Assembly (NCBI RefSeq): GCF_000003855.2
Contig: NW_003101674.1
Location: forward strand, 263,149-327,148
Direction of reading: 5' to 3'
Length of the DNA: 64,000 nt
Source of the DNA: Blastomyces gilchristii SLH14081
Taxonomy: Eukaryota; Ascomycota; Eurotiomycetes; Onygenales; Ajellomycetaceae
The position numbers and the translations under genes are program-made. Under the pieces are notes generated by a model. It saw only the letters and a program-made list of their open reading frames with translations, did no database searches and was not told the DNA's origin. Positions 20,279-48,682 of this stretch are shown here, in pieces. The first letter of the stretch is position 1, and every line of letters begins with the position of its first letter.

Positions 20279-20784
20279 TAGACTGGCCGCCGGGACCATG
20301 AATTTCATGTTTGGTCCCATTTGGTCTGGTCCCATACATTTCTTGGCGTGAATCCTGCTGGGACTGGCTATTAAAAAAACATGTAAAGTGACTATATATC
20401 AGATCTTAAAATGAAATCATGACTTGAAAAAAATGAGAAAGTGGTTTCATTTGATCTCATTTAGTCTTATTCTTGGTATAAAGTTACTATTTTTAGACAT
20501 TTTAAGATTTTTTTTAGACTATTTTTAATTTTTTAAAAAGTAATGCTTTTTGATAACACTTAAATAAGATTTAAAATCATTTAAAGTAATAAAAATAATT
20601 TAAATTGAGAAGTGAAAATCATAATCTTATTTGAAAAATGTGATAAGAGTAGATAGTAAGTCTCACTGAGATAGTATAAGACTACTATCTAATGTTAAAA
20701 CCATGTAATAAGATCAGTTAAATTAATAATGAGACTATTAAAAAATCTGATTCTAATCTCAGATACAGTTACACAGTCAGTCTA
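20279..20784 (+). mobile_element. MITE copy 1 (506 bp, hAT-like)
   Basis: Starts TAGACTGGCC and ends GTCAGTCTA. It is flanked by the perfect 8-bp duplication ttcattct (20271-20278 and 20785-20792). It is inserted just inside the left inverted repeat of the pogo element. It has no coding capacity. Confidence 0.9.
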
Positions 20785-21130
20785 TTCATTCTTCATCTTC
20801 AAATAATTATTATTAATTATAACCATGTCTAAATCTTCTAATTACACTGAGAAGCAGTTGTAAAGAGCTGTTAACATGTATAAAAGTAATTTAAAATTAA
20901 AAATCATGTCTCTGTTATGAGAATTCAAAGTCTTATATATTATCTTATATGAGAGAATTAATAGAAAGAAATCAAGAACTATAAGAGTTTCACTGAATCA
21001 AGTATTGAATAACAGTTAGAAAGAGATAATTAAGATATGAATTTATCAGTTAAACATTAATTTTTACTTATTCATCATTGAGTATATCAAAGCTGCTGTA
21101 AACTGTATATTAAAACAGTATTATATAGAT

Positions 21131-21663
21131 TGTCACGCTCCCGGCCGTGTCAAGACCCTGTTACGGTTTCACACGGCTCATTACTTCTATGCAGATGATT
21201 TCTTCTCATCTGAACTGGTTTTCAATCACTTTATGACATCATTCAGATATATCATAGAAAGATCTGATTGATAAATATAAGAACCTCACTTCTATACAAG
21301 ATCAGCAGATTACTCTTTCTTGACAATGAAATACTACTGAGATATCACTTCAACTATTCTTACTCATGAAATAAGAGAAGAGTATTCACTTATTATCTAT
21401 ATAGAATAGCTAGATACTGACTTCTTATTAAAGAAGTCAGTGATTTGTTTTTCTTCTACTGAAATATATACAAGAGTTACTGTGTATCTTATATAATCTT
21501 CTTAGTATACTAAGTATTATATCTATGATATTCTCATAATAACTCTGTAGTCTACAAGCTCACTATTCAAGCAAGATAGTCAAGCTCACTTATACAGCTT
21601 CTTAAATAACTATTCTTATATAATATCACTGACTAGTTATCACTTCAGTTCTGTCATGTTATA
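21131..21663 (+). repeat. 5' LTR of Gypsy-1
   Basis: 533 bp beginning TGTCACGCTCCCGGCCG and ending TGTTATA, where the 3' LTR has CATTACA. The left end keeps CpG-rich sequence that is mutated in the 3' LTR, while the right end of the 3' LTR keeps CpG lost here. Confidence 0.9.
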
Positions 21664-24600
21664 ATTTAAATCACTTAATCTAATTATATATTTGAATCAG
21701 TCAAGCTTTAACAGACTGATATAATCTTATACACTCATACTGAGACTGATCTGATCTCACTCTCTAAGAGAAATACTATATTATTCTCTAGAGTGTATAT
21801 ATCTCTATCTCAGCAGAAATTCAAGATTTCTGAAATCACTGTATATTTTGACATAAGCTCTTTAATTACTCTGTCACTGCTGTGACCTCTACACATCTAC
21901 ATCTATTATAAAGATAGAGAGATTAAGATCAGAGATTTACTGAGATATAAGAGAAATATCTTGTCTGAATTTCACAGCTTTATCTGTATTCTTGAACAGA
22001 AATTCCACCTTAATCTGAGTCAGTATAATACTTATAAAATATAAGTAATATATATCATCAACCTTCTTGAAGGCATCTCTATAACTACTTAAGCTATTAA
22101 GAAGAGAGAGCTTGAGTATATTAATACTATTATAACTTAAAAAGAATTCAAGAACTTTCTACTGAATTAAATTAAAGATTACTGTAACTACAGCTTTATA
22201 GCAGTATAGTAATTTAACTTATTATATTAATAAGATAATGAGAATTCTTTCAATTTCAATATAAGATTTGAAGAATATTAAGAGAAATTAATTAATAATT
22301 TAAATCAATTAAAAACACAGCTTTATCTTATGAAGCTGACTTATAAGATACAGATAATAATATTATAATATCAGAGTTTATTAACTAATTATACTGAGCT
22401 TGTCAATCTGGCTTTTCAGATCTATTTGAATAATCAATTCTTTAAGAAAAAGATTAATAAGATCTCTTCTAAGTAATTAATAATAAGATCTAAACAGTAC
22501 TGTGACAGCTTCAGTGTAGAGAAAGTAAAGAAGAATTTCAAGTATTCTGATTCTTCACTTACTGTGAAGAAATGTTAAAAAAGATTTGATAAAGATTTCT
22601 ATTTCAACTGTGAAGCTGATAAATACTATATTAGTAATTATAAGAAGCTGAAGAAGAGAAGAAACTGAGAAGATATTTTCTCAAAGTTAACTTCTCTTCT
22701 GATAAATGTATTCATGAAAGATAATAAAGAGAAAGAAATAAAGAATTGATAATTCTTATATCTCTGAGTTCATATTATAATCACAATGCATACTCTGAAT
22801 AGAGAGATATTAGTAAGATGTCTACTTAACTTTAAGATAAATATTAACTTCATATTCTATTTCTTTTCTTTGATGAAGAGTTGAAAGAAGATAGATTTAT
22901 CAGATCATATAAAATTTACAGATGAAATAAAATATCACTGTTTTAACATAATTTAAGCAAAGTGTGTAATCACAGATTTAGAAGAAATCTTTAAGAAGAG
23001 CAGTCTGCTTCTTCACACAGTTAATATCATAGATAAGAACATTATTCTAGATCTCTTATAATTAAGAGAAAACAATCCTCTTATTAACTGAGTTACTCAG
23101 ATATAATGATATTATCTCACTAATGAAAAGACAGTGATAGAGAAATCTGAAGAGTTTCATCAGAAGAATCTTGAGAAAAAGATTGAGTCAATATACTATG
23201 TAACAGGTGATTGAGACTTGAGAATAGATGAAGAAGTTATTACTCTCACTATAAAATTAGCAGCAGTATCTGTTATTGAAGACAGATGTATATAACATCT
23301 CTTTACAGATTTTAAGAATGTCTTTTCAGAAAGAAAAGCAGTGAAGTTTCCTGATATCAAGATATAATATAAGATTTATCTTGAAGACAGTGTAACAGTA
23401 CTGTACAGATCTCTTTATAACTTATCTATAAAGAAATTAAATATTCTGTGTAAATATCTTGAAGAAGTGCAATTAAAGAACTGAATATATTCATCAAAGA
23501 GTCTGACAGAGACATCTATACTCTTTATACTTAAAATAAATGATAGACTATGTCTATGTATAGACTACAGAGATCTCAATAAGATGATAATTAAGAATTA
23601 CTATTCATTACTATTAATTAATAAGATGATTGATTGATTATCTGAAGCAAAGATGTTCTTAAAGATTGATATACAGAATATCTATCATAGAATCAGAGTT
23701 AACAAAGATAATGTTTGAAAAACAGCTTTTTGTATCAAGTACAGTAATTTTGAATATCTTGTTTTATCTTTTAGTCTTTATAATGCTTCAGTCATCTTCT
23801 AGATCTATATAAATAAGATGCTGTAGAGTCTTGTTAATGTCTTCTGCATAGTATATCTGAACAATATTTTAATCTTCTTGAAATCAGAGAAAGAATATGA
23901 TATTCATGTTTAAGAAGTATTAAGTCACTTGAGACAGTATTAACTCTATACAAACACTGAAAAATACTTATTCTATATGCAGAAGATTGATTTCTTAGAT
24001 TATATTATTAAGATGAATAGCATTTCAATGAATAGAAGCCAGGTCTCTGTCATTAAAAACTGACTGACACTGTAGATATACTGTGAGATGCAGATGTTTC
24101 TAGAATTTATGAATTTCTACAGATGATTCATCTATACATATTCATGAATTACTGTTCTTCTTACAGATCTGTTAAAGAGAAGTGTGAAAGACAGAAAAAT
24201 AAAACTATTTATTCTCACTCAAGACACTGTGTAGATGTTTGTGAAATTGAAACAAGCTTTCACAGATGTTATGATGCTGAATCACTTTAACTCTGATTTA
24301 TTCAGTCAGTGTGAGACTGATGTATTCAGAAATGAAATCTATGAAATCTTTTCACAGTTAACACTGAAGACCTTTCAATATTGAAAGAATCAGAAAATAA
24401 TCACTTCTGAGAAAACAGATAATGAATTATCTGTAAGAGAAGACTTTTTCACAGAGTTTATAAGATACTGTAAATGAAGATCAGTGACTTTCTTCTTCAA
24501 GAAGTTATTACTCATGCAGAGAAGATATAATACTTATAATTAGAAGATGTTAGTAATTGTCAAATTCTTTAAGATCTGATAACATTATCTTCAGAGTAGT

Positions 24601-27409
24601 AAGTACTCAGTATAAGTTCTCACTGATTATATAAATCTGCATTACTTCTTGATAACAAAGAGCTTGACAGAATGTCAAGTCAGGTGAGTAAAGCTGCTTT
24701 CAAAGTATGATTTCTATATCTGATACTGTTCAGATCAGCTTAATCCTGTCAATATACTGTTTAAACAGCCTGATTATAATATTATTAATGCAGAGAAGAA
24801 TTCTATAAAAGAATCTCTGTTATCACTGTAGAAGAAGCTGGCTGCAGAGAGTTAAAGTTCTCTAAAGCTTGAAAACAGTGCTGAAGAGGCAGCTGTGTGA
24901 CCTAGTATAGAAGATGAAAGAGAACTCAGATCTCTGCAGAGAACTGATACTGAAGATTATAAGCTTCTTATATTATATCTTACAATCATTGAATTAGCAA
25001 AGAATGAAATGATCTACAATCTTTTAACTTAACTACTTTTGAAATTCATTGATAAGTTACAGAAGAAGAACATCTCTACTGCAGCTTGAATTCAAAAGTT
25101 GAAGAAGAAAGAATTCAGTTTAAACTTGAAAGAGACAGACTCTGAGCAGAGCAGTACTGCTAAGAAATTAAGTCACTGATAACTAGAAGAATGTGAACTT
25201 CTACTGCTGAATGATTCAGTCTTTGTCTCTCATAGCAGAGTGATGTATCAGAAGTTATTAAGAATTCATCATAATAATTCTCATACAGAGCACTTCAGGT
25301 TAGAGAAGACTGAGAAGCTTCTAAAATATAAATATACTTAAGACAAGCTCTGAACAGATGTCAAAGAGTATATTAAGACTTATAATATTTATCAAAGAAT
25401 AAAGATTCTGCAGTATAAGTAATATAATGAGTTAATATCACTGTCTGTTTTAAAGAACTTATAATAGAATCTATTAATGAATTTCATAGTTGATCTATCA
25501 AAGTCAACAAGAGTCAAAGAATATGACTTAATTTTAGTCATTATTAACTGCTTTACAAAGATGACTAGATATATTTCTATCTATAAAAAGATTAAAGCCT
25601 CTGAATTAACTGATCTGTTTTTAAATATCATTATTCATGATCACAGTGCTCTGAAATTATTAATAACAGATTGAGAATCTCTCTTCATCAGTAAATACTG
25701 ATCAGCTTTTTACTATCATCTTATAATAAGATGTCTTCTCAGTATCACATTTCATCTGCAGACTGATGATCAGACTGAATATCAGAATCAGATACTAGAA
25801 CAGCATCTTTAAGCATTCTGTTTATATTATCAGAATAATTGACTCAAACATCTTTTAATCATCAAATTCATATATAATAATACAAAGAATACAATCTTAA
25901 AGATATCTTCTTTCTATGCTTGTTATGAATATAATTCTTTGTTATTTAGTGACATTGTGAATGATATTTCAAAGAGAGAAATAGACAGTCAGAATGTCAG
26001 ACAGGTACAGAGAACAGAGTATTTCTCAGTGTTAGAAGTAAAAGTGAGATTGAAACTTTTGAATAAAATTCATGAGAAGATGATGAAAAGCATTCACTGT
26101 GTCTAGAAGCAGTAGATGAAATACTATAATTGAAAACATCTTTTAATGAAGTTCTTAATAGAGAATCAAGTACTACTTTCAGCAAAGAATATCAAGATAA
26201 TAAGATTATATAAGAAGCTCAGTGAGTGATGACTAAAATCTTTCTCAGTAACAAGAGTAATGAGTAAGCAGATATATGAGTTGAAATTATTCACAGAATT
26301 GAAATCAATTTATTCTGTTTTTCATATTTTCTATTTGAAGCTCTATAAGTAATATCTCAGAGTGAAGCTGCCTCAGCTGAATAATATTGAGATTAAGAGT
26401 GATACTAAATATCTTATAAAGAAAATATTAAATAAGTAAACACATTACAGCAAGCTTCAATATCTTATTAAATAAGAAGAATATTCATTATCAGAGAATT
26501 CATGAGAATTACTTGAGTATTTGAAAAATGCTGAGAAAGAGATTGCAAACTATAAGACAGTTAGTAGAGACTGCTCTATTACACATCAGAGACATTGAGT
26601 AAGAAATACTGCTTAAGACTTCTCATTTTTCTCAAAGAGTTTTTTAGAGATGATCTTGTAGTGATGAGCTGATATCTTGTAGACTCTGTAGCACTCTTCT
26701 TCTATTTTCTCTCAAAGGGTTTTTAGAAGTTTAATAAGACTACACAAGTGTAACATTCCTGAAGTAGTTAAAAGAAAAGAGATATTTGAAATTAATAAAA
26801 AGATTAATATTATTGATCTGTGAGCTGCTGCTATTCTAATGAGACTGCAGCTCACTGAAAAAGTAAAAAGAGAGAATCTCAGAGTCTACTCATCAATAAT
26901 TATACTCTTATTAAACTCATTCTTCACTGTTGAAGTCTTCAGCACTGATATCTTTGTCTGCTGAGAAGTTAGTGCTGTAATACTGCAGAGAAGCATGCTA
27001 CAGAAGAATATGAGAGATGCTGAAAGTATTAACTTATCAACTTACAAAGTATCTCAGTTATCTGCTTCAACTGAAGTGAGATTCTCTTCAATCAGTGATT
27101 GATCTCTGCAGCACTTTCAACAGCAGCATCAGTTGATTTCTTCTTGAGATCAGTCATTCTGAGATGTTTTTTCATCTCAAAGACTCATGCTTTCATCTTC
27201 TTTTACAGATAAGTAAGAGAGATCTTCTCAGTCTTGATAAAATCTGTCAATACTTGAAGCTCTGAGACTCTCACTCTGTACTGTTTAAACACCTGAGCTT
27301 CTTGTCAGAGCTGACACAATGTCTTCTTGTAGAGTAGATAATACTTACAGAGAGACAGAAGTTGTTATTACAGATATAACAGAAATAACAGAAGTAAGAG
27401 AAGAGATAG

Positions 27410-27873
27410 ATGCATAAAATCCCCCTCTTCTTCAGCTGCTTGACACAGTGCAGACAAGTAGTAGTGCTGATCAGAGGCTGCACTGAAGCCTTCTCACAGA
27501 GAGAAGATGAAGAAATCACAGGATTCTGCAAACTCAACTCAGCAGCAGCTCAAGCAGGGCTCAGATATACTGCAGAAGAGAAACTACAGATTGAGCTTCT
27601 CAGAGTCACTGTCTCTGAAATCAAGCTCTTCTCAGATTCCTCTCTGAATGACCACACAGGGTCATATACCACTGTATTAGCTGAGAGAGAAGGTGATGTT
27701 ACAATGACAGTGAGAGAGATAGAGAAAGAACTGGACACAGACAAACTGACTGGCAGAAGAGATGACATCTCACTGCAAGGCACAGTGACTACTGCTGCAG
27801 TCACAAGAGAAGCAGAAGAAGAAGAAGAAGATATGAAAATGAGAGTGATACTTTTATAACTCAGTGATGCCAC
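27410..27873. other. GC-richer, CpG-free island inside Gypsy-1 with open frames on both strands
   Basis: Between the chromodomain and the 3' LTR a stretch of about 450 bp is clearly less AT-rich than its surroundings. It is open for 149 codons on the plus strand (27410-27859; starts MHKIPLFFSC, ends in Glu-rich sequence). It is also open on the minus strand (27873-27550 and, in another frame, 27537-27271, with a CLHCVKQLKKRGILC cysteine cluster). I cannot tell which strand, if either, was coding. An accessory 3' ORF of the retrotransposon, possibly antisense, is the simplest idea. Confidence 0.5.
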
Positions 27874-28407
27874 TGTCTCTGTCTTTAACTAAGCTTTCTT
27901 AACAGTCACAGAGATCATCACTGCATCATGAAGATGTTTATTCACTAGAAAACATCAGAATAAGTTCTTTATTATTCTTTAAAAATGATACTCTCATACA
28001 CTCACTGTTACAATTGAGAAAGAGAGAGAAAGAAAAATGTTTCATAGAGAAGAGAATCTTTTCAAAAAATCCTGCTACTACTGTTAGCTTTGTCTCTAAA
28101 ACACACTACTTTTGCAGAGAATTTCATATATAGAATGAAATATAATGAAAGATCTGTAAGTCACTTATTAACTACATTTTTCATATTTCAAATTAATATA
28201 TAAGAAACTCACTTATCATGTGTTTGATTTGAATGAAGATGAGTAAAGAAAGATCTATACAGTCAGCAGAAAAACTCATCTATTTCTTTGTATCACATGC
28301 AGTACATGCACTGTCAATCAGTTAGTAATTATTGCTATATAATAAAGATAATTTCTAATTCAGTAATCTTGAGAGTATAGAAACTATGCTCTTAAAGAGA
28401 AGAGTAT

Positions 28408-28940
28408 TATCACACTCTCAGTCATATCAAGACTCTGATACAGTTTCACATAACTCATTGCTTTCATATAGATGATTTCTTCCTGTCTGAACTGGTTTTC
28501 AATCACTCTATAATATTATTCAGATATATCATAGAAAGATCTGATTGATAAATATAAAAATCTCACTTCTATATAAGATTAGCAGATTACTCTTTCTTGA
28601 CAATGAGATACTACTGAGATATTACTGCAGCTATTCTTACTTATGAAATGAGAGAAGAGTATTCACTCATTGTCTATATAGAATAGCTAGATGCTGGCTT
28701 CTCATCAAAGAAGTCAGTGATTCATTTTTCTTCTACTGAAATATATATAAGAGTTACTGTGTGTTTCATACAATCTTCTTAGTATACTAAGTATTATATC
28801 TGTGATATTCTCACAATAACTCTGTAGCCTATGAGCTTGCTATTCAAGCAAGATAGTTAAGCTCACTTATACAGCTTCTCAAACAACTATTCTTATATAA
28901 CACCGCCGACTAGCCACCGCTTCGGTTCCGCCACATTACA
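28408..28940 (+). repeat. 3' LTR of Gypsy-1
   Basis: 533 bp, the same length as the 5' LTR. It begins TATCACACTC (TG changed to TA) and ends CGCCACATTACA, directly followed by the duplication tagat. Confidence 0.9.
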
Positions 28941-29274
28941 TAGATTCAGAGACTGTATCTCTCATAGTAAGTAAGATATAAATATATTAATTCATCAAAC
29001 ATCTGTCAGTTTATAAATGAGTTAAGTAAAAACTCATGAATTTAAAACAAGTGTCTTATGAGAATATAAGCTTTATTATTAACTGATTTAATTGATATGA
29101 AGCTATCTTTAATTAATATTAATTTTTTCACTATAATATCTATAACTTTAATGAGATTGAATTTCAAGAAGAAGAAGAATACAGACAGTGAGTTATAATT
29201 ATCTTTAAAGATATAAATTTCATTATATAGTTATTATACTCTCACAGATTAATAACAGTGATGAAGTGTGTTAG

Positions 29275-29532
29275 TGTAAGAAATCCCGCTTCTCACGAAT
29301 TCTTTACCTCTATTTCTATCTCTCATATAATTAATAGAGTTAGCAGCCCTTGACTATACACAACTATATAGACTGAAGTTCATGAATACTATTTATAACT
29401 CAGCTTGAATACTATTATATATTTAATCTCTACATTTTATCTTTCTACTGTGAATACTTCTAGTAGTTAATAGTATATATTATATTAAGCTGCAAACATC
29501 TGAATAATCATCTATAAGCACTTATTCTTATA
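29275..29532 (+). repeat. 5' LTR of Gypsy-2
   Basis: 258 bp starting TGTAAGAAATCCCGC and ending TTCTTATA, preceded by gttag. It aligns along its whole length with 38185-38442. Confidence 0.9.
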
Positions 29533-31884
29533 TTTCAAGCTCAGTTAGTTAGCAATCACTTATTATAACTGAAAGAACTAGAAACTTATATACTTCAATC
29601 TCTATGAACTCTACTGCAGACACTCAGAAGCAGTTATCTGAATTATGAATAACTCTTATAAAAGAAGTCTCAGAGAACTTATTAATTAGTTACAGAATAT
29701 TATTCTCTATATCTATAATAGAGAAACTCTCTGAACTTATAAATAAATTAATCTTAGTAAAGAATATTCTTGAGTATCTTTCACAGAATTAAGTTATTTT
29801 TCTACAAGAAATACTTACTATCTATAAACACTCTTGAACTGAGTTTTTAAATATAATCTTCAGAGATATCTACAAACTGAAAAGAAACTTTATTAAGCTA
29901 TAATTACTTAAGACTAACTATTGAATCACAATCTATAAAAGCTTTTATAAGTTTGTATTTGAAATTGACTTACAAGCTCAGCTGTATAATATAAAAGATG
30001 AAGAAGCTGTTATTTATATAATAACAGATCTCTACTACACTGAAGTCAAGAACTGACTGAATTATTTAGAGAATAATTATAAGAGATTTCACTAGTCTGT
30101 TCTCAAGATCTATCTAAAGAATAAGTTAAAAGACTCTGTAAGCTGAACAGAGAATATCTGAGCTGTAATTATTAATATTAGAAAAAGAGATAAGAAATCT
30201 GATAAAGACTACTTATAATACTTTATAAAATTATGATATGAATTAAAACTCATAAAAATAGAGCTCTGAAACAAGATCTGAATAATAATATTTATAAAGA
30301 GACTGAATAAAGATATACAGAATAAGCTTATTAAGTAAGACTCTAAGTTCTTAACTCTGAAGAAACTGATAACTCTTATTCACTGTTTATAGATTACTGT
30401 AAGAGTTACAGATTTATAGAGAGTGAATTATTAATCAGCTTCATAAGAGTCAGAATAATAGAGAATAGATTTATTAGAGAAAGATAATAAGATATAGAGA
30501 GATTCATATCTAACTACTAAGTAGAGAGAGAGAGCTTTATAAGCTTCTATAAATAGAGTATATAATAGAGAGATTAAGAAAAAGAGTCTCTATTTCATCT
30601 ATTCTAAATCAGAATATCTCTGTACAAACTGTTCAGATAAATTAAAATAGAAATTTAAAAAGTTATAAACAGAGTTAGTAACAGTCTTCTTAAGAGTCTT
30701 GAAGTTAATATCTGAATCTGTTACTTCTTTAATAAAAATATATACTTACAGAGAGAGACTGTACTACAGTACTACTATTTTATAAGTATAAGAAGTATTA
30801 ATAAACTCAGAATCTCAGATCACTATAGTGTCTTTAAAGCTTATAAAGTGAATAAGCTGAATAATGAAAACTGAGAATCTGCTTTTATAATAAGCAGAGT
30901 ATGAGAACTCAGATCTGAGAGCTGAGAGACTTACAAGAGTTATCTTTGAATTACAAGATCTCTCTAACATCTGAAGAAGATTTATAAAAACTATAATTAT
31001 TACAGACATTACAGATAATATATACTTAAGACTTATATAACTTCAAAGACATAATTCATACATAGCTGTCTATAAGTCAGGTTTATACTTTTAATCAGTG
31101 TTAATAGACTCACTTACAGAGATAGAATTAGTTAATACTATAGAGTTAATTAGAGAAGATAAGCTTATCTATATAATAACTTTATAAATGTCTGAGAACT
31201 TTGCAGTTATGAAAACTGAGCTTCAGATATTAGAGAAATACTGAGATCTTATAGAGATATTCAGCTTAGTAAAAGCAGCTAAGCTTTCTTCTTACTGTAA
31301 GAAGAATCTGATAATAAATTTAATAGAAGAGTAGAAACTCTTCTAAGAATTAATCTATAAACTCTTTTATTATAAGATAGAGATTTTACAGATCTATATA
31401 AAGAAGAATCTGAAGAATAATTTTATCTAATCTTCACAGATCTCTGTAAGAGTCTCTGTGATATTTATAAAGAAGAAGAATGAAGATTTCAGATTATATA
31501 TAAACTACTGTAATCTGAACTTTAAAATAATAAAGAGTCATTATTCTCTGTCTCTAATTAAGAATATAATCAACTGTCTTACAGAAGCTGTTATATTTAT
31601 ATAACTGAATATAATCAATATATATACACAGCTGTGAATATAGTTTAAGAATGAATAAAAGACTGTCTTTAGAACTGCACTGAGATTATTTAAATATCTA
31701 GTAATATCTTTTGATTTGACTAATATCTCTACAGCATTTCAGTCTTTTATTAATAAAATACTTTGTATATATCTGAATATCTTTATAGTAATATATCTGA
31801 ATAATGTGATAATGTACTCTATGAAGAAGAAAGAACACACTGAGTATATATAAAGTGTATTAAAGATCTTAAATGAGACAGAAC

Positions 31885-32390
31885 TAGACTGGCCGCCAGA
31901 ATCATGAATTTCATGTTTGGTTTCATTTGGTCTGATCTCATACATTTCTTGGCATGAATCCCGCTGGGACTGGCTATCAAAAAAACATGTAAAGTGACTA
32001 TATATCAGATCTTAAAATGAAATCATGACTTGAAAAAAATGAGAAAGTGATCTTATTTAATCTCATTTAGTCTCATTCTTGATATAAAGTTACTATTTTT
32101 AGACATTTTAAGGTTTTCTTTAGACTATTTTTAATTTTTTAAAAAGTAACACTTTTTGATAATGCTTAAATGAGATTTAAAGTCATTTAAAGCAATAAAA
32201 ATAATTTAAATTGAGAAGTGAAAATCATGATCTCATTTGAAAAATGTGATAAGAGTAGACAGTAAGTTTCACTGAGACAGTATGAAACTACTATCTAATG
32301 TTAAAATCATGTAATGAAATCAGTCAAATTGATAATGAGACTATCAAAAAATCTGGTTCTGGTCTCAGACATGGTTACACGGTCAGTCTA
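31885..32390 (+). mobile_element. MITE copy 2 (506 bp)
   Basis: TAGACTGGCCGCC to GGTCAGTCTA, flanked by the perfect 8-bp duplication gacagaac (31877-31884 and 32391-32398). It is inserted in the reverse transcriptase region of Gypsy-2 and so is younger than Gypsy-2. Confidence 0.92.
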
Positions 32391-33784: not shown

Positions 33785-33923
33785 GAGTAGACAGTAAGTC
33801 TCACTGAGACAGTATGAGACTACTATCTAATCGTTAAAACCATGTAATAGGATCAGTTGAATTGATAATAAGACTATCAAAAAATCTGGTCCTGGTCTCA
33901 GACACAGTCACACGGTCAGTCTA
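33785..33923 (+). mobile_element. MITE copy C (plus), right end only, nested in B
   Basis: The last 139 bp of a plus-oriented copy ends GGTCAGTCTA at 33923 and is followed by gtcagtcc (33924-33931), the expected target duplication in B. The left end lies in the run of N. An extra base near 33831 also points to low sequence quality. Confidence 0.8.
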
Positions 33924-36900: not shown

Positions 36901-37012
36901 TTGTCTTAATTACCTGAATTTTATGAGTACTCAGAGACTTATCTCTTATTAATAATAAGATTGCAGAAATGTACTGTAGTATAAGAACTGTTAATAGAGA
37001 ATCTAGATATAT

Positions 37013-37315: not shown

Positions 37316-38184
37316 TTAGAGAAGTTACAGAAATACTTATAAGAAGCTCAGCAGTGATCAGACATTATTTATAAAGATATTAAAATTGAAAAAAATTTTT
37401 ATTCTTGAGAAGTTCTTGAATTAATATACAGATATTGTTAGAAACACTCTCTCTCTATTATCTGAGTGAAAATACTTTATAAATAAATAAGAATACTCAT
37501 AGTTTATAAGAATAAGAGCTGTTACAGAAAAAGGAAAAAGAAGATGAGATTTTATAGACAGACTGAGATATTTATACTACTCTAGAGAGATTTTTTTATA
37601 CTATAAGTGATTTTACAGAACAGTCAGATTACTCTAGTAAATAAAGAGTAATTATGAATTACAGATCTGAATCTTTCTATGTGATTATAAAGAGTGATTA
37701 CAGACTATAAATATCTTGATTCTATAATTCTACAGAGTTGATGAAAGAATGAAAAATTTCTTACAATTCTACAGTATTAAAGAATGATGATTTATAAGAA
37801 TAAGTGAAAGATTAACTTATAAATACTTCTCTTTGATGAGAATAATCTTACAGAGAGTAATTCATCTGTGAAATGAATCTGTGTAATAGTTATATAAGAA
37901 TCTTATAAAAATGATTAAGAGCTAACTGAAACTCTTCTGTATGAAAGATATGAGATGAATCTGTGTAGTAGTTAGAGAAGAATCTGTAGATTATAAAGAA
38001 TCTTACAGAATAAGAAACTGAGTGACAGACTCTTTTCTCTTTATAATAATAAGAGATTTTTCCTCACTGAGATTTTTTTATAGATATAAAGAGTTTTTAG
38101 TGAGTATCACTGTAGTACTGAGCTGATTCTATAAAGTCACTCAGTGAAAGACTTCATAAACAAAGCCTTAAAGAGAAGAGAATA

Positions 38185-38442
38185 TGTAAGAAATCTCACT
38201 TCTCACAGATTCTTTATCTCTATTTCTATCTCTTATATAATCAGTAGAGTTAGCAGCTCTTGACTATATATAATTATATAGACTGAAGTTTATGAATACT
38301 ATTTATAACTCAGCTTGAATACTATTATATATTTAATCTCTACATTTTATTTTTCTGCTGTGAATACTTCTAGTAGTTAACAGTACATATCACATCAAGC
38401 TGCAAACACCCGAATAATCGCCTGTGAGTACTTATTCTTACA
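38185..38442 (+). repeat. 3' LTR of Gypsy-2
   Basis: 258 bp starting TGTAAGAAATCTCAC and ending TTCTTACA, followed by gttag. It keeps CACCCGAATAATCGCC where the 5' LTR has the C-to-T changed form. Confidence 0.9.
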
Positions 38443-38918
38443 GTTAGTGCAGATAACACAGTATTGAATTCATTAATTGTAATGAAATTGAAGATTTATC
38501 TGAAGAATTAATATACATACTTTAACTTATCTGATAACTACATCATCACTGTATCTGAGTCTGACTTTATAAATGATGAGATTGAATTTGAATAGATTAA
38601 GCAGTTTAATAAGATGATAAAAAAGTGTCAAATAAGCAGTTATCAACTGCTATTAATAAATAATCATAATTCTCATCTTATAGAAGAATTTATTCAATAC
38701 TGTAATCTTTACAAGATTATTCTGTTCAGATTCTTATCTTATATAAGTTATATTCTATAATCTCTTGATGATGTATCTTTTCAGCAGTATAAGTATTATT
38801 ATATAAAGACAGTTAATAAGACTGTCTGCTACAGATATAAGCAGTATAATAACAGATAATTTCTTGCTAATCTGAAGAGTATCTGACTGTAAGTATTCAA
38901 ACCTGATACTGTGAGAGC

Positions 38919-39424
38919 TAGACTGACCGTGTGACCGTGTCTGGGACCAGGACCAGATTTTTTGATAGTCTCATTACCAATTCGACTGATCCCATTACAC
39001 AGTTTTAACATTAGATAGTGGTCTTATACTATCTCAGTGAGACTTACTGTCTACTCTTATCACATTTTTCAAATGAGATCATGATTTCCACTTCTCAATT
39101 TAAATTATTTTTATTGCTTTAAATGACTTTAAATCTTATTTAAGCATTATCAAAAAGTGTTACTTTTTAAAAAATTAAAAATAGTCTAAAAAAAACCTTA
39201 AAATGTCTAAAAATAGTAACTTTATGCCAAGAATGGAACTAAATGAGATTAAATGAGATCACTTTCTCATTTTTTTCAAGTCATGGTTTCATTTTAAGAT
39301 CTGATATATAGTCACTTTACATGTTTTTTTGATAGCCAGTCCCAGCAGGATTCACGCCAAGAAATGTATGAGATCAGACCAAATAGAATCAAATGTGAAA
39401 TTCATGATTCTGATGACTAGTCTA
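38919..39424 (-). mobile_element. MITE copy 3 (506 bp, minus)
   Basis: Inserted in the pogo transposase near its DDE/C-terminal part, with the perfect duplication gtgagagc (38911-38918 and 39425-39432). The left end TAGACTGACCGTGTGACC keeps the CpG sites well. Confidence 0.92.
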
Positions 39425-40094
39425 GTGAGAGCTGGCTTTACTGACTGCAGAATGTATTCAGTTAATTATAATATAATTCTCAATTGATTAAGATCTCTTA
39501 TCATTGATGATGCTCTGAATCTCAACATATATAATGATGATGATAATATACACAATCACTTTATCTCATCATCTGCAGATTAACTGTTAACTGTCTTCTT
39601 ATAATTAATCTTCTCAGAGACAGTTATAAAACTACATCATCAAATTAATACAGCAGTCAAGACCTTAGAAGATGTGAAGAATACTCTTACATCTGATTTG
39701 ATAAGATGATTGAATAAAATCTTCAAGAGTAGTATAATTCAGACAGAATTGAATACACACTGTGAGAGTAAACTTGCAGATTATTATTAAGTAAATAGAT
39801 GTTGAGTCATTAAATTCTTTCACAGATAGATACAAGTAGATGAAGTTCTCACTATTAAGAATGTTAATTGCAAGATCACAATCTGTAGAGCAGATGAGAT
39901 GAAAATGACATTCAATAAAACTCTTCAATTAATTGAAATCAAATCTATAAAATCTACAGTCACTCAATCACAATAAGATAATTCTATAGAATCTCAACTT
40001 ACAGTGGATTCTACATCTTCTAATGAGTATATAGATAATCTTTATGTTATAGATAGATATGATGATGATTATTAATTAATTTTTGAAGATTACT

Positions 40095-40252: not shown

Positions 40253-40558
40253 TATATTAAGGTTTACACTTAAGCAAATCACACACGTCTATAAATTAGC
40301 ACTGAAGAAGTCTGAGAGAAATACTTCTCTTCTCTTTACTTCTTCAGTGATTAGCCTCAGCCTCATATCTAAAAGTTAGGCAATAGAGTATTGAACATCA
40401 CAAAGCCACTGCTTCTTAACACATCGAATCAGACTTGGCGCACTAGTGACTCTGCTAGAAGCAATCTCTGCTAAAATGAATGTTCTTCTTTAAAATCTTA
40501 GCTGTCAGAGAGATACATTGATTGTCTAGAAAAGAAGAGTCTAGAGAATTATATACAA

Positions 40559-42062
40559 TTAAGATACAGGCAAAGGGTTCACTCAGCCACTAAGTCATAA
40601 ACTAATAATATGCCTCAACTTTGTTAAGTCATCTGCTCTCACATCATCAACCTTCTTGAAGTCTTGAAGAATTGTGTCTATATATTCGCCTGCACTGCTA
40701 AGTTTCATAATCTTTGCAATAGCTTGATAGACATCAAGAAGCCGAGCCGATGGTGAATCAATGATATGATTGAGACTAAGAGTGAGTGTGCGAGTAATGA
40801 GAAACAGCAGATCACATAGAAAGAGGCTTTACTTCATTGAATAAATTCTGTACTCATATGATTTACTTATTAATTCAAAATATATCTGGAATTCACCAAA
40901 TAATCAATGATGATTATGTGTCAAGGTAAGAGCATTCAACAGACTGTCAAGCTTCAGGCCATCAATGAGATGAATAATGCCAGAGTCAAACATATTTAAA
41001 ATCTGAGATACATTCTTCTTTGAGTCACTCTAGAGCCTTGCATCAGTTATTCTAGTCAGTCAGAGACATGAGATACATTCACAGCAGACATATCAGATCA
41101 GTGTTCTGGGAAGAAAGTATAGTTAGACAATGTAGCAGAATGTGAGCAATCTTCAGATATTGAAATTGATCACTTGATTCATTTTTCAATGAATTTTCAT
41201 CATCATCCTTGCAATCTTCTCTGTCCTGCTTTCACCGCTTGCTGGCTTCATTTTTATCAAACTTCTGAGAAACCACAGACCGGTGATTATCACACATGAG
41301 ACAACTTTGTCATAGAATAGATACACATTGTGTCATTTCAGTAGATGTGAATGCCTGTATTGAGAACAATGACTTTGGCATTGCTTGCGGGGTCTTCACA
41401 GAGGAAGCTCTGACTAAATTATTCATATTAACATATGATTCTGGTGGTGGGGAAGTATCTTGATTGCATATGTGAAAGAAGAAAGTTCTTAACAATGTAC
41501 TCAGCAAAACTTTCAATAATGCTATCAGCATTCTGCTTTTGATTCTGATCCCAGCTAGAGAAATCATTGAACAAGGACAAGATGACTGCAATGTCAGAGT
41601 CAATTGAATTTACTACTTCTGAGCATAGGTTTTCATAGATGTGTGAGAAAAAGAACAAGAGAAATGCATCTTTAGAAGTAACATGCTCAAATATGATCTG
41701 AATAAGTACTGTAGATTTGTAACTAGGCTGTATAGTCTGCTTCAAGTCATAATGCTGAATTAGGTATCTGAAAAGAGTTATTGCTGCTTGATGTTGTTGA
41801 GAAGTTAGTGAAGACTGTTACAAGAAGTCCAATACCTTTTCTAAAGATGACTGATGTTGATGCAAAGCCATGATTGATAAAATCGATAAAGAGAGTGTGG
41901 TAGGCTCTGTGTGAAGTTGGTTCGCGAGTTAAATATTTAAGAGGCTGAGAACGACTTAAATATTTATTTAGGTAAGCGAAACTCTCTTGCAAGCTGTAGT
42001 AGAGCACTTTCAAAACTCAGCTCTTCATATCTCAAATGGCTAATGATATTTCTCTTACTAGA
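40559..42062 (-). pseudogene. HNH_2-type nuclease-domain protein, pseudogene
   Basis: A long minus-strand remnant read mainly in two frames with several stops. From its N-terminal end it carries LRYEELSFESALLQLAREF, QHYDLKQTI, YLIQHYDL and NADSIIESFAEYIVKNF. The nuclease-like part has KTPQAMPKS, SVVSQKFDKNEASKR, CKDDDENSLKNESSDQFQ, KIAHILLHCLT, HLIDGLKLDSLLNALTLT and LFGEFQIYF. The C-terminus has SARLLDVYQAIAKIMKL and AGEYIDTILQDFKKVDD. This matches the HNH_2 (PF13391) proteins common as multicopy genes in Eurotiomycetes; the paired His of AHI...H and the Asn/His region are visible. Its role in fungi is unclear. Stops such as the TGA in NHH*LFGEF mean it is dead. The start is approximate. Confidence 0.75.
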
Positions 42063-42776
42063 ACAATCGTTCGAAGCCTTCTACAGCATACAGTCCTCAT
42101 TTCAGAGTGAAGACAATAAGCACCTATGAGTTCTTGAAATCTCCGTTGACCCTGGTAAACCGCTGCTGACAGTGCTGAGGACATGAGATCAATCACAAAA
42201 TATGAGAAGCCACTCTGTTATTTCATTCACGCAAATCCCAGTATGAGCTCTGAGAGAATGCTGAATGAAGAGAGCTGAAGAGAGGGAGTCAAACAATTAC
42301 AGTACTGAATTCAAATGTTCAGGTGAAGAATCGCCTTCTCATCCTCAACATGAATACTGATTATTATGAAATACCCGACCCTTACAGCAAATCAAATGAA
42401 TATTACAAAATCACTACATCTGTGTATTTATCAGAAACTATGAAAGAGAAGATTGTCAGAGATTTAAGTATGAGATCATTTACTTGAAATCAATCTTTTA
42501 TATTTGTATATAGAACATTCATCTGTATATAAAGTTTTTCTCTTAATATACAGAGTAAGTATCAATCAGATGCTCTTTCACTCATCACTCTTTAATATAC
42601 TTTTACTCTAGAGTGTGTGTAGAATCACTCTAGTATAATAACTACAAATTACTTTATAAACAGAATTATCATATCTCTGAGAAGCTTGCACTTCTCACTA
42701 GTTTTTAAATATACTATTAGATGTGATTCAAAGATGTCTGAGTTAGTGTAATAATAATATGAGTGTATACTGATTC
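42063..42776. other. Region between HNH pseudogene and Copia-2
   Basis: The first 350 bp is close to normal composition; the last 350 bp grades into AT-rich sequence. No gene or element was recognised. Confidence 0.4.
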
Positions 42777-42872
42777 TGTGAAAGATGTAAAGCTTGTGTG
42801 ATTGAAAAAGTTGCTAGCTTGTGAAAAGTTATATGATGAAAGAATTAGTAAGCCAGATCATGTGACCTGACA
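42777..42872 (-). repeat. LTR of Copia-2 (left, element 3' end)
   Basis: 96 bp, TGTGAAAGATG to CATGTGACCTGACA, preceded by gattc. It differs from the right LTR mainly by transitions. Confidence 0.9.
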
Positions 42873-45800
42873 CCCTCACTCACCAGAGTAACTATACACA
42901 ATGCTATATACAAAATTCACCTTTAAATCAAGTACAGGTACAAAAAATAACTGGAAAATGTGAAGTAATGAAAAACCAGTTATAATATACATCATTTTTT
43001 ATCCCTCTATTCTCTCATCTTCATATTCTCCTTTCAATATGTATATTTCAATGTTTTAAGTGATTTAGTAAGCTCATCTGCTATGTTCTCAGCAGATGAG
43101 ATATATCAGATAGATATCTCATTCTTATAGATAAGATTCTGAAGAATGTGAAAATAAATCTCTATATACTTTGAGCAGTGTGAAATTGCTTCAGAAGAGA
43201 ATAGCTCTATGATAGACTTATTATCAGCATGAATTGTATAAGCCAGATCATTGACTGTGATGAGAATGAGATGATCATCAGCATTCAGATTGTTAAGACA
43301 GAATGAGATGAATTCAGTGTCTTCTAGAAGCTCGCGGAGATAGACAAGCTTATATGCAGTCTCAGAGAATGCAATATATTCAGTCTCTGTTAATGACTTA
43401 AAGACCTCTGTCTGCCGGCAGCTCTGTCATGCAACAGGGCCACCTGTCATGTAGATGATGTAATCAGTGATTGAACAGAATTCTGAATCTCTATCAGCTC
43501 AATTGGCATCTGTATATACTACAGATTCAATTTTGACATCTCTGTGATAGGTTATACTCTCATTGATTGAATCCTGTAGATATCAGAGTGTATACTTGTA
43601 TACAGCTCAGTTCTTTGATATAGACTGAGAGCTAAATCATTCAAGAAATTCTGCAGTGAAGCTCATATCAGAATATATATTAAATATCAGATATTACAGA
43701 GATCTGATACTAGATTAATAGAACTGTAGAATAAATTCTGCTATGTATATAATCAGTTTCTTATCATTATTTATAAAATCAATATTCTTCTTTATAGAAG
43801 TGAATGTAGAATGATAGTCATTCATTGAGAACTTCTTCAGAAGATTTCTTACAAAGAAAAGTTGAGATAATATTAATACAGTTAAATCTTTATCAATTTT
43901 CATTCTCAGATAGCAGTTGAAATTCTCTATATTCTTAATCTTATAATTAGCAGCAATTTTAACTTTGACTCAGTTCAGATCTTCAATTTTCAGACTGTAG
44001 AGATAAATATTATTTATATAAATAATTATATAGATCTATCTTTCATCATGAATAAATAGTTCAGTATTATAGAGACTGACACAGAATTCTGAGTGTAATA
44101 GCATTTTTCACAGCTTCTTATATTATAAGAGTACTGCTTGCTTAAGATTGTAGAGTTTCTATATCAACTTATATATAAGATTATCACAGTCTTTACAGAA
44201 TTCTGTGAATTAATTCATATATATCTGTTCATCAGCAGATAGCTGAGTGTTTAAAAAAGTGATCATTATATCAATCTGTAGAATATATCATTCTCAGAAT
44301 GCTGAGATTATTATGAAAGCTTAAGAGATAAATACAGAGATAACAGATATAAAGATTCTTAAGTAATTAATTTTCTTCTATTAATGATTTCTGCAGACAA
44401 CTCAGCAGGTCTTATAGTAAATAATCTCACTCATATTATTGAACTTTTTATCAAATACTCATTGACTGTGAAGAACACTCATTTATGATATTCTCTCTAT
44501 CAGTTATCAGATCTCTATCTGTTTTAAACAGTTGATCTCTTTAATACAGATCTTATAATAATACTTTCATTTCATGAAAGCTTTGACATGTGTGAGGTTT
44601 TTCAGGATTGAAAGTGCAGTGATCTCAGAATCAGTGAGTAGATCTTTAAGACTATCTCTCACTAAAGATTTCCTCACTGTAGATTCTCTCACTATAGTGA
44701 TATCTCTTATTAATATTGAAGAGTCATCAGATTCAACTGTGAATTCTGAGAAGTTCAGTGTATTCTGCACTAAAAAGATAGATATTCTTATGAAGATATC
44801 ATAGTCAATTCATCAATTATTAGTGAGTATGAGAAATAATGAACACTCAGGTTGAATTTCCTTCTCAATGAACAGATTATTAATTGATGAATCAGAAATC
44901 ACTGCAGTCTCTTGACAGGCTGCAGTGAATAGATCTAGTGTCACTGAAGAAATTATCACAGCTGCTTTACAGATAACATTGAGTAGAATCTTCAGATTAT
45001 GTGTAGTAGTTGATATCAATGAATTAGTAAGATGAAGGTTCTTCTGAAAGATGATGTCTTTTAATATGTATAAATATCTGTTGAAGTGGTTCATCAATCT
45101 ATAATTGATAAAATCATTATATCTTACAAAAATCAACTCTTTGAAACAGAAAGCCATCTTATTGATGAGCTTGGAAACTATTTTCAAGAATGCTTTGCAA
45201 CCTCATCAGTGAATGCCATGTGCAGAGAGTAGAGCTTCAAGCCAGGCCTCATACAGTGTAATTGACTTTGTATTTTCAGAGCTCTTATACAATATCATTG
45301 AGATTGATATAAGGTTAAGCAGCTCTGTGACTGCAATAACTGCCTCATTTCACATCTTTTTCAGAGCTGAAGAGTCTATTAAAAGTGATCAGAACTTCTT
45401 AATAATTAAACTGATTGATTATTCAGATACTTCATCTTACTGTAAAGTATAAGAAGAAGTCAGCTCTTATTTTATATCTTCACTGAGTATATATGCTGTG
45501 ACTGTGTTTGAATTCAATTCTTCACAATCTGAGTGAATAATTACAATGCTATGTCTCAGCAGATTCTCGATAAATTGATTGAAAATCTGTAGATATCTCA
45601 ATATCTCATTCTTGTATTTCAATAGAAATATTCATCTTATATAAGTGACATCATCTGTTATCATCATTGCAAGCTTCTTACTGATATAAGATAATATATT
45701 ATTCTCAGTTTCAAGAGTCTCACTATCACTGAATATATTCACTCAAATCTTCAAGGCCTTGCAGATGGCATGATGTGATGTGAAATTCTTGTAGAAAGCA

Positions 45801-46468
45801 TGTTTCTGTTTAGTCTTAATATATGTAGCACAGAATGATAATTTCTTCAGACTGATAATAATAATATCACATCACAGATTTCTGATCATTTTTAATATAC
45901 TATTTTCACTGATATGACTAAGTTGATGATGTTACTCATCTATCAGAAGCTGTTTCAGAAGAACTGCAGATAATTAAGATGAAGATGAGATAATAAAGAA
46001 ATCAGTATCTGAATTCTTAGAGTTAACTAACTGTTCAATCTTCTCACAGCTGAATAATCTCAAAGACTCTGCATTCAGATTATAATCTGTTGAGATTGTC
46101 TTTGATTTCAGAATAATCACATATATCACTGCTTCATATATTGAGTCATTTATTACTTCATGAAATGTCAGTGAGCTGTTGAATAGAATATAAATATTAT
46201 TGTGAGACAGATTGACATAGAAGATATCACTGTTAATAGATGATAGAAACTCAAAGTAGTTCTCAGTATTAACTTATATATCACAGTGAATATAGCTCTG
46301 ATGCTTTATAAGTTCAGTGAAGATTAGATTTACAGATAGTTCTGACATGTAGTATATATAATTGAATTCTATCAATCTTTCACTCACTGAAATGAATGCA
46401 GTGCTGATACTTTGAACCTTCAGAATAATATTATTAATCACTTGAACTGTTAAATTATTAATTACTAT

Positions 46469-46975
46469 TAGACTGGCCGCTGAGATCATGAATTTCACAT
46501 TTGATCTCATTTGATCTGGTCTTATACATTTCTTGGCGTGAATCCCGCTGGGACTGGCTATCAAAAAAACATGTAAAGTGACTATATATCAGATCTTAAA
46601 ATGAAATCATGACTTGAAAAAAAATGAGAAAGTGGTCTCATTTGATCTCATTTAGTCTCATTCTTGATATAAAGTTACTATTTTTAGACATTTTAAGGTT
46701 TTTTTTAGACTATTTTTAATTTTTTAAAAAGTAACACTTTTTGATAACACTCAAATGAGATTTAAAGTCATTTAAAGCAATAAAAATAATTTAAATTGAG
46801 AAGTGAAAATCATAATCTCATTTGAAAAATGTGATAAGAGTAGACAGTAAGTCTCACTGAGACAGTATGAAACTACTATCTAATGTTAAAACTGTGTAAT
46901 GAGATCAGTCGAATTGGTAATGAAACTATTAAAAAATCTAGTCCTGGTCTCAGACACGGTCACACGGTCAGTCTA
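46469..46975 (+). mobile_element. MITE copy 4 (507 bp)
   Basis: TAGACTGGCCGC to GGTCAGTCTA with the perfect duplication attactat (46461-46468 and 46976-46983). The same place in Copia-1 near 1762-1772 has attactat only once, a natural empty site. Confidence 0.95.
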
Positions 46976-47662
46976 ATTACTATAAGTTTTGAAAATCATG
47001 ATCTATTACTCACTATGTGGCATTCAGTGTCACTATCTCATATAGTGAGAGAATTCTTGTAAGATTTCATGAAACAGACTGATACATTGATTATCTCTGT
47101 GAGATTTGCTATCTGATAGGTCTCTGATTCATCTGTAATGAATAGTTGAGTTCTACTCTTACTATTGTTCTTTTTCTTCTTTTTCTTGAATTTCTTTATT
47201 CTTGCAGTATTATTTATTCTTCAATTATTCAGAGCACTGTCTGAATTGATCAATCAACAGATATTAAAGTGAGATCTCTCACATTCAGAATATGTAGATG
47301 AATTTTCTGATCTCTGATAATTTTAAAAGTCTTCTTAAGTACTATTATAATCACATTCAGTACAGTCTTCATAGGCTGAATTTGATGTATTATTATTAGA
47401 ATTGATAGATGTAGTGATTGTTATAGCTGTAGTTGTTATAGCAGAGTTAATTACAGAATCTGTATTCTATAGATTCTTTTTATCTTTTAAAGAATCAAGT
47501 CATGAATAAATCTTCTCTATGAGAAATCAACATTCAATATCACAGCTGTGAATTTAAAATTCTGTATCTTCTCTATCTTCTTCTGAACATAATCTCTTCA
47601 ATTATTAAGTAGAACTGAGTAGAAGATATCAAATATTCATGCATCTGAGAGAGAAGTATTCA

Positions 47663-48682
47663 TAGACTGGCCGCCGGGATCATGAATTTCACATTTGATC
47701 TCATTTGATCTGGTCCCATACATTTCTTGGCGTGAATTCCGCTGGGACTGACTAGACTGACTGTGTGACCGTGTCTGAGACCAGGACCAGATTTTTTGAT
47801 AGTCTCATTATCAATTTGACTGATTCTATTACATGGTTTTAACATTAGATAGTAGTCTCATACTGTCTCAGTGAGACTTACTGTCTACTCTTGTCACATT
47901 TTTCAAATGAGATCATGATTTTCACTTCTTAATTTAAATTATTTTTATTGCTTTAAATAACTTTAAATCTCATTTGAGTGTTATCAAAAGGTGTTACTTT
48001 TTAAAAAATTAAAAATAGTCTAAAAAAAACCTTAAAATGTCTAAAAATAGTAACTTTATGCTAAGAATGAGACTAAATGAGATTAAATGAGATCACTTTC
48101 TCATTTTTTTCAAGTCATGGTTTCATTTTAAGATCTGATATATAGTCACTTTACATGTTTTTTTAATAGTCAGTTCTAGACTGATTGCTGAGATCATGAA
48201 TTTCACATTTGATCTCATTTAATCTGATCTCATACATTTCTTGGCATGAATCCTGCTGGGACTGACTATCAAAAAAACATGTAAAGTGACTATATATCAG
48301 ATCTTAAAATGAAACCATGACTTGAAAAAAATGAGAAAGTGATTTCATTTGGTTTCATTTAGTTTTATTCTTGGCATAAAGTTACTATTTTTAGACATTT
48401 TAAGGTTTTTTTTAGACTATTTTTAATTTTTTAAAAAGTAACACCTTTTGATAACACTCAAATGAGATTTAAAGTCATTTAAAGCAATAAAAATAATTTA
48501 AATTGAGAAGTGAAAATCATGGTCTCATTTGAAAAATGTGACAAGAGTAGACAGTAAGTCTCACTGAGACAGTATGAGACTACTATCTAATGTTAAAACT
48601 GTGTAATGGGATCAGTCAAATTGATAATGAGACTATTAAAAAATCTGGTCCTGGTCTCAGACACAGTCACACGGTCAGTCTA
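47663..48682 (+). mobile_element. Composite of MITE copies D, E and F
   Basis: 47663-47752 is the first 90 bp of a plus copy (D). 47753-48176 is a minus copy (E) lacking its last 82 bp plus the duplicated site. 48177-48682 is a full-length plus copy (F). The outer 8-bp duplication is agtattca (47655-47662) and agtattta (48683-48690), and Copia-1 near 2452 shows the empty site. Internal joints fall at ggactgac and its reverse complement gtcagttc. Confidence 0.9.

What the first reader, a model, noticed from the sequence alone, without database searches (positions are those of the whole stretch)
20279..48682. A 506-bp non-autonomous transposon family with TAGACTGRCC ends and 8-bp target duplications
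Ten insertions can be dissected by eye. Full copies are 506 or 507 bp, start TAGACTGGCC and end GGTCAGTCTA, and are bordered by 8-bp duplications: ttcattct, gacagaac, ctaatatc, caaatgag, gtgagagc, attactat and agtattca/agtattta. Short inverted ends plus 8-bp duplications fit the hAT superfamily; no transposase is encoded. The uniform length suggests amplification from one master deletion derivative. I know of no name for it.
Basis: partly seen in the sequence, partly recalled or inferred. Interest (0 to 1): 0.75.

Follow-up and report, generated by a model that had tools for sequence, protein, structure and literature searches.

The report
Fungal hAT miniature transposon and partner
The repeat is a genuine 506-base miniature transposon of the hAT superfamily, present in over two thousand copies in a fungus-like genome, and its ends match a longer, now broken hAT transposon that also carries a histone-H3-like gene; it is a new member of a known kind.

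Summary
The seven quoted 8-bp duplications are real. Over 58 full copies the flanks agree at 8 bp and at no other length tested (40 identical, 49 with at most one mismatch). Four of six window insertions have clean related empty sites. It is a hAT MITE: 506 bp in 52 of 58 copies, 10-of-11-base inverted ends, 2,339 core-marker matches in 74.8 Mb. The predicted coding relative exists: one copy read whole is 5,756 bp with the same ends, a perfect 8-bp duplication and a hAT dimerisation domain; its markers match 589 and 605 times. All 150 scored domains (of 259 candidates) have in-frame stops, so the family looks dead. The partner carries a reverse-strand histone-H3-like frame, a layout already published for Pyrenophora tritici-repentis (PMC3538342). 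By-product: the repeats compared are hypermutated at CpG and CpC before CpA, unlike the RIP preferences in the passages read.

The parts
20279..20784 (-). full MITE, 506 bp, duplication ttcattct (+ strand)
31885..32390 (-). full MITE, 506 bp, duplication gacagaac; related empty sites in L069, L082 and L037
32975..34368 (+). MITE A, 506 bp, interrupted after its base 159 by composite B; duplication ctaatatc; related empty sites in L037 and L069
33134..34013 (+). composite B: MITE with a shorter reversed MITE nested in it; duplication caaatgag, inserted in A; part of its interior is withheld
33833..33923 (-). readable left-end part of the MITE nested in B, next to target gtcagtcc
38919..39424 (+). 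full MITE, 506 bp, duplication gtgagagc (query copy)
46469..46975 (-). full MITE, 507 bp, duplication attactat; the paralogous repeat has the site empty at 1762-1769
47663..48682 (-). composite O: MITE with a second MITE nested in reverse at its bases 417-424; 1020 bp = 506+8+506; duplication agtattca/agtattta; the paralogous repeat has the site empty at 2448-2455
47753..48258 (+). nested MITE inside O (its last 82 bases lie inverted)
   Evidence: interpretation of the pieces is inference

Best explanation
A miniature inverted-repeat transposable element of the hAT superfamily. It encodes nothing and was moved in trans by the transposase of a longer hAT element with the same ends (a 5,756-bp copy lies at G000:C2:2593003-2598758) or of a close sister. 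The transposase recognised the shared inverted repeat and GACCA/TGGTC-rich subterminal stretches (inferred), cut the element out and inserted it with an 8-bp staggered cut, leaving 8-bp duplications (shown by flanks and empty sites). One 506-bp sequence was amplified to over two thousand copies (inferred from uniform length), some of them into its own copies and into the partner (shown). Host hypermutation of repeats then broke the transposase copies, so the family is probably immobile now (inferred from stops in every scored transposase domain).
For: 8-bp flanks: 40 of 58 unique full copies identical, 49 of 58 with at most one mismatch, 0-3 of 58 at any other length from 3 to 12. Related empty sites: of six window insertions tested, four have joined-flank matches spanning the site at 87-91% in paralogous repeats, one has only a weak gapped match (76%), one none. 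30 left ends in order along contig C1: 22 full MITEs (504-508 bp), 1 interrupted, 7 partners, 0 other; 14 of 22 flanks identical, 18 of 22 with at most one mismatch. 2,339 matches (up to 2 mismatches) to a 28-base MITE core marker, 0 for the reversed-pattern control. Partner: same ends, perfect gctatgct on both sides, 5,756 bp; dimerisation domain 36.8 bits against a cut-off of 21.4 in a read-through of L032; 29 of 29 loci L032-L060 carry a GGCC-, GGTC- (28 together) or GGCT-type AGTCTA end (1) at the same distance from the domain; 589 and 605 marker matches, controls 0. Shared termini by profile, in a set of 18 target sequences: E 2e-25 to 4e-30 on the right, 4e-7 to 1e-11 on the left. Target preference T2/A7 symmetrised 48 of 98, p 0.002. 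GACCA/TGGTC: 10 of 14 occurrences in the partner lie in its first 80 or last 150 bases, 5 of 6 in the MITE near its ends. 32 of 175 distinct element ends abut MITE (7) or partner (25) sequence. Stops in all 150 rows.
Against: The core of the MITE does not match the partner firmly, so the partner found is not proved to be the one that mobilised it. 109 of 259 candidate domains were not scored, so an intact copy is unlikely but not excluded. 9 of 58 copies have flanks with 2-7 mismatches, explained by mutation or recombination but not tested one by one. Position 5 of the inverted repeat is C, not the G of the usual hAT end rule (recalled). No movement was observed.
Confidence: 0.94

Rival explanations
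1. The MITE is the cut-down form of a different, sister hAT element whose subterminal regions include the MITE core, and the 5,756-bp element is only a cousin that could cross-mobilise it.
For: Core bases about 61-354 have no firm match in the partner; right-end similarity is 80-91% over 429/431-506 in several copies and 74-78% where the match extends to 382.
Against: No third class of left end in 30 ends in order on C1; of the 30 hAT loci fetched only L031 lacks the end, with no TAGACTG-type end in its 3.1-kb locus. The other 120 scored domains were not looked at for ends.
Confidence: 0.45
2. The MITE is a plain internal-deletion derivative of the 5,756-bp family.
For: Same ends, same duplication length, and a weak collinear match of MITE 309-354 near partner bases 221-264 (E 0.05-0.6 by profile; E 9e-5 by BLAST against one copy).
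Against: About 250-290 bp of core unexplained.
Confidence: 0.2
3. Not hAT but another superfamily with 8-bp duplications (P, Merlin, KDZ or Mutator-like; recalled).
For: Inverted repeat lacks G at position 5.
Against: hAT dimerisation domain inside the element with the same ends.
Confidence: 0.03

Closest known systems
H3L-carrying hAT element of Pyrenophora tritici-repentis (Manning et al. 2013, PMC3538342; passages and section 20 part 1 seen)
   Same: About 5.6 kb, hAT transposase with dimerisation domain, central ORF of unknown function, histone-H3-like gene, and a shorter non-autonomous form. The partner here is 5,756 bp with an H3-like frame, a central frame without Pfam match above cut-off and a hAT transposase.
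   Different: Here hundreds of copies, those examined broken by transitions; there 10 long and 16 short copies, almost identical. The short form there is 2.3 kb and chimeric, not a 506-bp MITE.
H3-carrying hAT family of Pseudocercospora fijiensis and relatives (Dhillon et al. 2019, PMC6710886; abstract, passages, sections 6 and 9 seen)
   Same: hAT, 8-bp duplications, hundreds of copies broken by transitions, H3-like cargo.
   Different: 9.5-9.9 kb, one to two H3 copies, 20-bp inverted repeat, no dimerisation domain found, CpA-to-TpA bias; here 5.8 kb, one H3-like frame seen, dimerisation domain present, CpG/CpC bias.
hAT MITEs in general, e.g. BniHAT-1/2 of Brassica nigra (PMC7385995; search listing only)
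   Same: High-copy hAT MITE families.
   Different: Other host; sequences not compared.

Membership tests
hAT superfamily | 8-bp target site duplication | tested here: met
   40 of 58 identical, 49 of 58 with at most 1 mismatch, no other length; 14 and 18 of 22 in the C1 sample; single-copy targets in empty paralogous sites
hAT superfamily | short terminal inverted repeats | tested here: met
   TAGACTGRCCG, 10 of 11 bases in the MITE, 11 of 11 in the partner copy
hAT superfamily | A at position 2 and G at position 5 of the inverted repeat (rule recalled) | tested here: inconclusive
   A2 present, position 5 is C
hAT superfamily | transposase with C-terminal dimerisation region (PF05699) in an element with the same ends | tested here: met
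   partner: 36.8 bits, cut-off 21.4, on a read-through; ends and duplication
hAT superfamily | catalytic RNase-H-like core | tested here: inconclusive
   a TTDNAANN stretch and a CxxH stretch seen by eye in the translation; no Pfam match to a hAT catalytic region in the read-through pieces
MITE | short, non-coding, uniform length, high copy number | tested here: met
   52 of 58 at 506 bp; 2,339 marker matches; none of the 21 stop-to-stop frames of 150 aa or more lies between 19998 and 51904
MITE | ends shared with a coding element in the same genome | tested here: met
internal-deletion derivative of the 5,756-bp element | all of the MITE is collinear with the longer element | tested here: not met
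   only about 1-60 and 355/382-506 match firmly
H3L hAT lineage of P. tritici-repentis | H3-like gene, central ORF, hAT transposase in about 5.6 kb | tested here: met
   layout; H3-like scores are below Pfam's cut-off, central frame by reading only; published layout
H3L hAT lineage of P. tritici-repentis | sequence homology of transposase and ends | not testable with these tools
   that genome is not held; a protein search with part of the read-through transposase found nothing at E 0.001

The most novel reading that the evidence does not exclude
The H3-like gene is a standing part of a hAT lineage rather than a fresh passenger: the same gene set and nearly the same length occur here and in P. 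tritici-repentis, so this lineage may use its own histone variant, for example to shape chromatin at its copies, and the 506-bp MITE is its miniature rider.
Probability: 0.2. Interest if true: 0.6.

Novelty: new member of a known kind. Interest (0 to 1): 0.36.

Why it matters
It gives a dissected hAT MITE with its likely coding partner in one fungus-like genome, with copy numbers, target preference, empty sites and fate, and extends the H3-carrying hAT elements to another genome with the Pyrenophora-type gene set. The mutation pattern on these families shows a repeat-directed hypermutation that prefers CpG and CpC, which makes them a convenient record for studying how such specificity varies.

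Tried and rejected
Self-insertion hot spot: three junctions in the window sit at MITE bases 417 or 424, which looked like a preferred site. A genome-wide search for that junction (up to 3 mismatches) gave 2 matches, both in the window, although 111 of 116 end-plus-site combinations from 58 copies would pass the threshold. Rejected in favour of one composite that moved or was copied locally. Triple nesting at 47663-48682: possible, but an inverted 82-bp middle piece between 424-bp inverted arms is simpler.

A shared motif near TTTTTGATAAYRCT in the MITE core and the partner was considered as a transposase site; it lies inside, not at the ends, and stays unexplained. Naming the host: genome size and the two-part base composition suggested Pseudocercospora fijiensis or Venturia inaequalis (recalled), but both are reported with CpA-to-TpA or TpA-enriched RIP, so no name is given; that it is a fungus is itself inferred from genome structure and gene reading. 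A protein-database search with residues 350-640 of a read-through partner frame found no match at E 0.001 (545 candidates). A literature text search for the end sequences gave 74 papers; of the 20 listed none is about a fungal transposon by title.

Full report
The window lies at G000:C9:263149-327148 of a 74.8-Mb assembly in 75 contigs. It alternates between gene-bearing blocks of 45-50% G+C and AT-rich blocks of 25-36% (2-kb steps). The finding covers the AT-rich block from 20 to 50 kb.

Observation. The ends are enriched over chance (15 matches with up to one mismatch, 4.9 expected, 0 of 100 shuffles as high). I assemble the pieces into nine elements: four free full copies, one copy (A) interrupted by a composite (B with a nested reversed copy), and a second composite (O with a nested reversed copy). 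O spans 1020 bp, which is 506+8+506; its parts match bases 417-506, 1-424, 425-506 and 1-424 of the copy at 31885-32390 at 83-94%, with the 82-bp middle piece inverted relative to simple nesting, as recombination between the 424-bp inverted arms would leave it (inference).

Empty sites. Joining 60 bases of each flank (one copy of the duplication) and searching the window and L001-L092: of six insertions, four have matches spanning the site, 46469-46975 and 47663-48682 in the paralogous repeat at window 1-3700 (87 and 89%, targets attactat and agtattca present once), 31885-32390 in L069, L082 and L037 (89-91%), 32975-34368 in L037 and L069 (87-90%; L051 in part); 20279-20784 has only a weak gapped match (76%), 38919-39424 none. 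So the element ends exactly at TAGACTG and the inserted unit plus 8 bp is what is missing.

Genome-wide family. The first search scored 40 of 2,885 candidates. A 25-base left-end pattern, which MITE and partner share, has 1,408 exact matches and 0 in the reversed-pattern control; a 28-base MITE core marker has 2,339 matches with up to 2 mismatches, control 0. From 120 BLAST pieces in L001-L092 and the window, 60 copies passed the filters (start within 3 bases of the left end, match reaching base 480, right end at least 7 of 10 letters, 20 bases of flank) and 58 were unique: 52 are 506 bp, the rest 504, 505, 507 or 508. Flanks are identical over 8 bp in 40 of 58; for lengths 3-7 and 9-12 only 0-3 of 58 agree. 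Many of these copies were selected for similarity to the query; the 30 loci taken in order along C1 from the left-end pattern are not selected for their interior, and give 22 full MITEs, 1 interrupted, 7 partners, 0 other, with 14 of 22 flanks identical, 4 with one mismatch, 2 with two, 1 with three and 1 with seven. The 49 duplications with at most one mismatch prefer NTTA on each side of the centre, symmetrised 48-49 of 98 per position against 34% background, p 0.001-0.002.

Coding partner. A genome search with PF05699 scored 150 of 259 candidates. Loci were fetched for 30; 29 of them (L032-L060) carry a TAGACTGGCC-type end at a fixed distance downstream of the domain, and 23 of the other 28 match L032 over nearly the whole 2.17-kb element part at 91.7-93.7%. 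One copy was read whole: 5,756 bp at G000:C2:2593003-2598758, starting TAGACTGACCGT, ending CCGGTCAGTCTA, flanked on both sides by gctatgct; a stretch of 1.27 kb beginning 2.5 kb upstream of it also occurs at window 37172-38441 (87%). Its read-through C-terminal part matches PF05699 at 36.8 bits. Two partner markers have 589 and 605 matches with up to 2 mismatches, controls 0. Of 57 right markers on C1 and C2 in the capped list of exact matches, 42 have a listed left marker on the same strand within 15 kb and 31 at 5.28-5.61 kb, against 5,456 in the copy read. All 150 listed domain matches carry at least one in-frame stop, mostly TGA; 109 candidates were not scored.

Relation of the two. A profile of 58 MITEs, searched against 18 partner sequences or fragments, matches the right end over MITE bases 354-382 to 506 (E 2e-25 to 4e-30) and the left end over the first 48-61 bases (E 4e-7 to 1e-11; two hits were extended to 94 and 254 through biased composition); the core has only marginal matches (E 0.03 and worse), apart from a 43-base BLAST match at E 9e-5 to one copy. 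GACCA or TGGTC occurs 14 times in the partner, 3 in the first 80 and 7 in the last 150 bases, and 5 of 6 times near the ends of the MITE: candidate transposase sites, not tested. Of 175 distinct ends in the loci, 32 abut MITE (7) or partner (25) sequence.

Composite. The junction of the nested copies (target GTCAGTCC at MITE 417-424) occurs twice in the genome, both in this window, and each composite has its own duplication (caaatgag; agtattca/agtattta). The simplest reading is that one nested composite moved as a unit of about 1 kb, which would mean that the outer ends suffice for movement; a second independent hit on the same site is not excluded, and the two inner copies differ in length.

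Histone-like cargo. On the reverse strand, about 0.7-0.9 kb from the left end, the partner has a histone-H3-like frame. A Pfam histone search of the genome scored 28 of 28 candidates; 16 match positions 37-40 to 96 in an 83-aa frame, all 16 below Pfam's cut-off (at most 21.8 bits against 26.4), 7 of them without a stop, and 8 of the 16 start 4.4-4.9 kb from a listed hAT domain on the other strand. Nine of eleven left-end copies examined show it; the other two do not reach that region; two (L078, L081) have no stop over 83 aa. Scores of single copies are weak: L081 against PDB, best E 0.007, the 60 sequences shown of 144 all histones, H3 by name except one; the read-through of L092 likewise, best E 0.022; Pfam 13.3 bits for L081 and no match for L078. 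Pyrenophora tritici-repentis has a 5.6-kb hAT element with H3-like gene, central ORF and transposase (PMC3538342, section 20 part 1), and Pseudocercospora fijiensis a 9.5-kb one (PMC6710886). The cargo is therefore a known phenomenon; this is a further instance.

Decay. Differences from the majority among 58 MITEs are 95% transitions (1,163 of 1,223); in the 22 full copies from C1 542 transitions and 45 transversions in 11,127 sites. The transitions depend on the next base. MITEs (columns with at least 15% C): T at 30% of C sites before C, 27% before G, 8% before A, 4% before T. Partner (24 of 30 fetched loci aligned; six dropped as partial or different; columns with at least 10% C): 54%, 82%, 15%, 3%; with columns of at least 80% C 12%, 19%, 6%, 1%, CpG ahead of CpC in both. 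A repeat pair in the window: CC 30 of 42, CG 2 of 2, CA 268 of 637, CT 85 of 550, so CpA is hit as well once CC and CG are nearly gone. Observed/expected dinucleotides in three AT-rich blocks: CC 0.17-0.37, CG 0.01-0.13, CA 1.06-1.31; in two gene blocks CC 1.10-1.16, CG 0.85, CA 1.00-1.05. The passages read give CpA>CpT>CpG>CpC for Neurospora and CpA~CpG, then CpT>CpC, for Trichoderma (PMC5496416; one sign is lost in the held text), CpG or CpG/CpA for Microbotryum and Aspergillus and CpA for Stagonospora (PMC2621366), and a shared CpA preference across fungi (PMC12543289). One search for CpC with RIP terms returned 9 papers, of which I opened passages of two; seven were not opened. The order here, CpG and CpC first, then CpA, is unlike those passages; it is a by-product that needs its own study.

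Verdict. A real, abundant and now probably immobile hAT MITE with its likely coding partner: a new member of a known kind.

Noticed in passing
window 1-3700, 21000-40000, 42000-50000; L001-L090: Repeat-directed C-to-T hypermutation hits C before G and before C first, then before A, hardly before T; CC is 0.17-0.37 of expectation in three AT-rich blocks against 1.10-1.16 in two gene blocks. This differs from the RIP preferences in the passages read.
   Followed up: partly
L092 about 3230-3400 (- strand); L078 576-824; L081 2196-2444: Histone-H3-like frame on the reverse strand of the hAT partner, open over 83 aa in two copies although every scored transposase domain has stops.
   Followed up: partly
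window 59785-59978: A lone, AT-rich fragment of about 195 bp matching only the H3-like part of the partner's left 1.5 kb (profile E 3e-40), bounded by normal-G+C sequence between genes.
   Followed up: partly
L091 233-1147: Central frame of the partner, K/E-rich, no Pfam match above cut-off; its start keeps CpG and CpC sites that are rare in the rest of the copy (by eye).
   Followed up: no
window 32153, 34087, 39143, 46738 and the partner copy in L092/L091/L032: A motif near TTTTTGATAAYRCT recurs in the MITE core (8 matches in the window) and 8 times in the partner copy, up to 1 mismatch, several in likely introns; no explanation.
   Followed up: partly
window 1-3722 and 44697-50012: A repeat pair 84-95% alike about 45 kb apart; the second copy holds two of the MITE insertions and the first shows both sites empty. 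The repeat itself was not classified.
   Followed up: partly
window 47663-48682: Composite with 424-bp inverted arms and an apparently flipped 82-bp spacer.
   Followed up: yes
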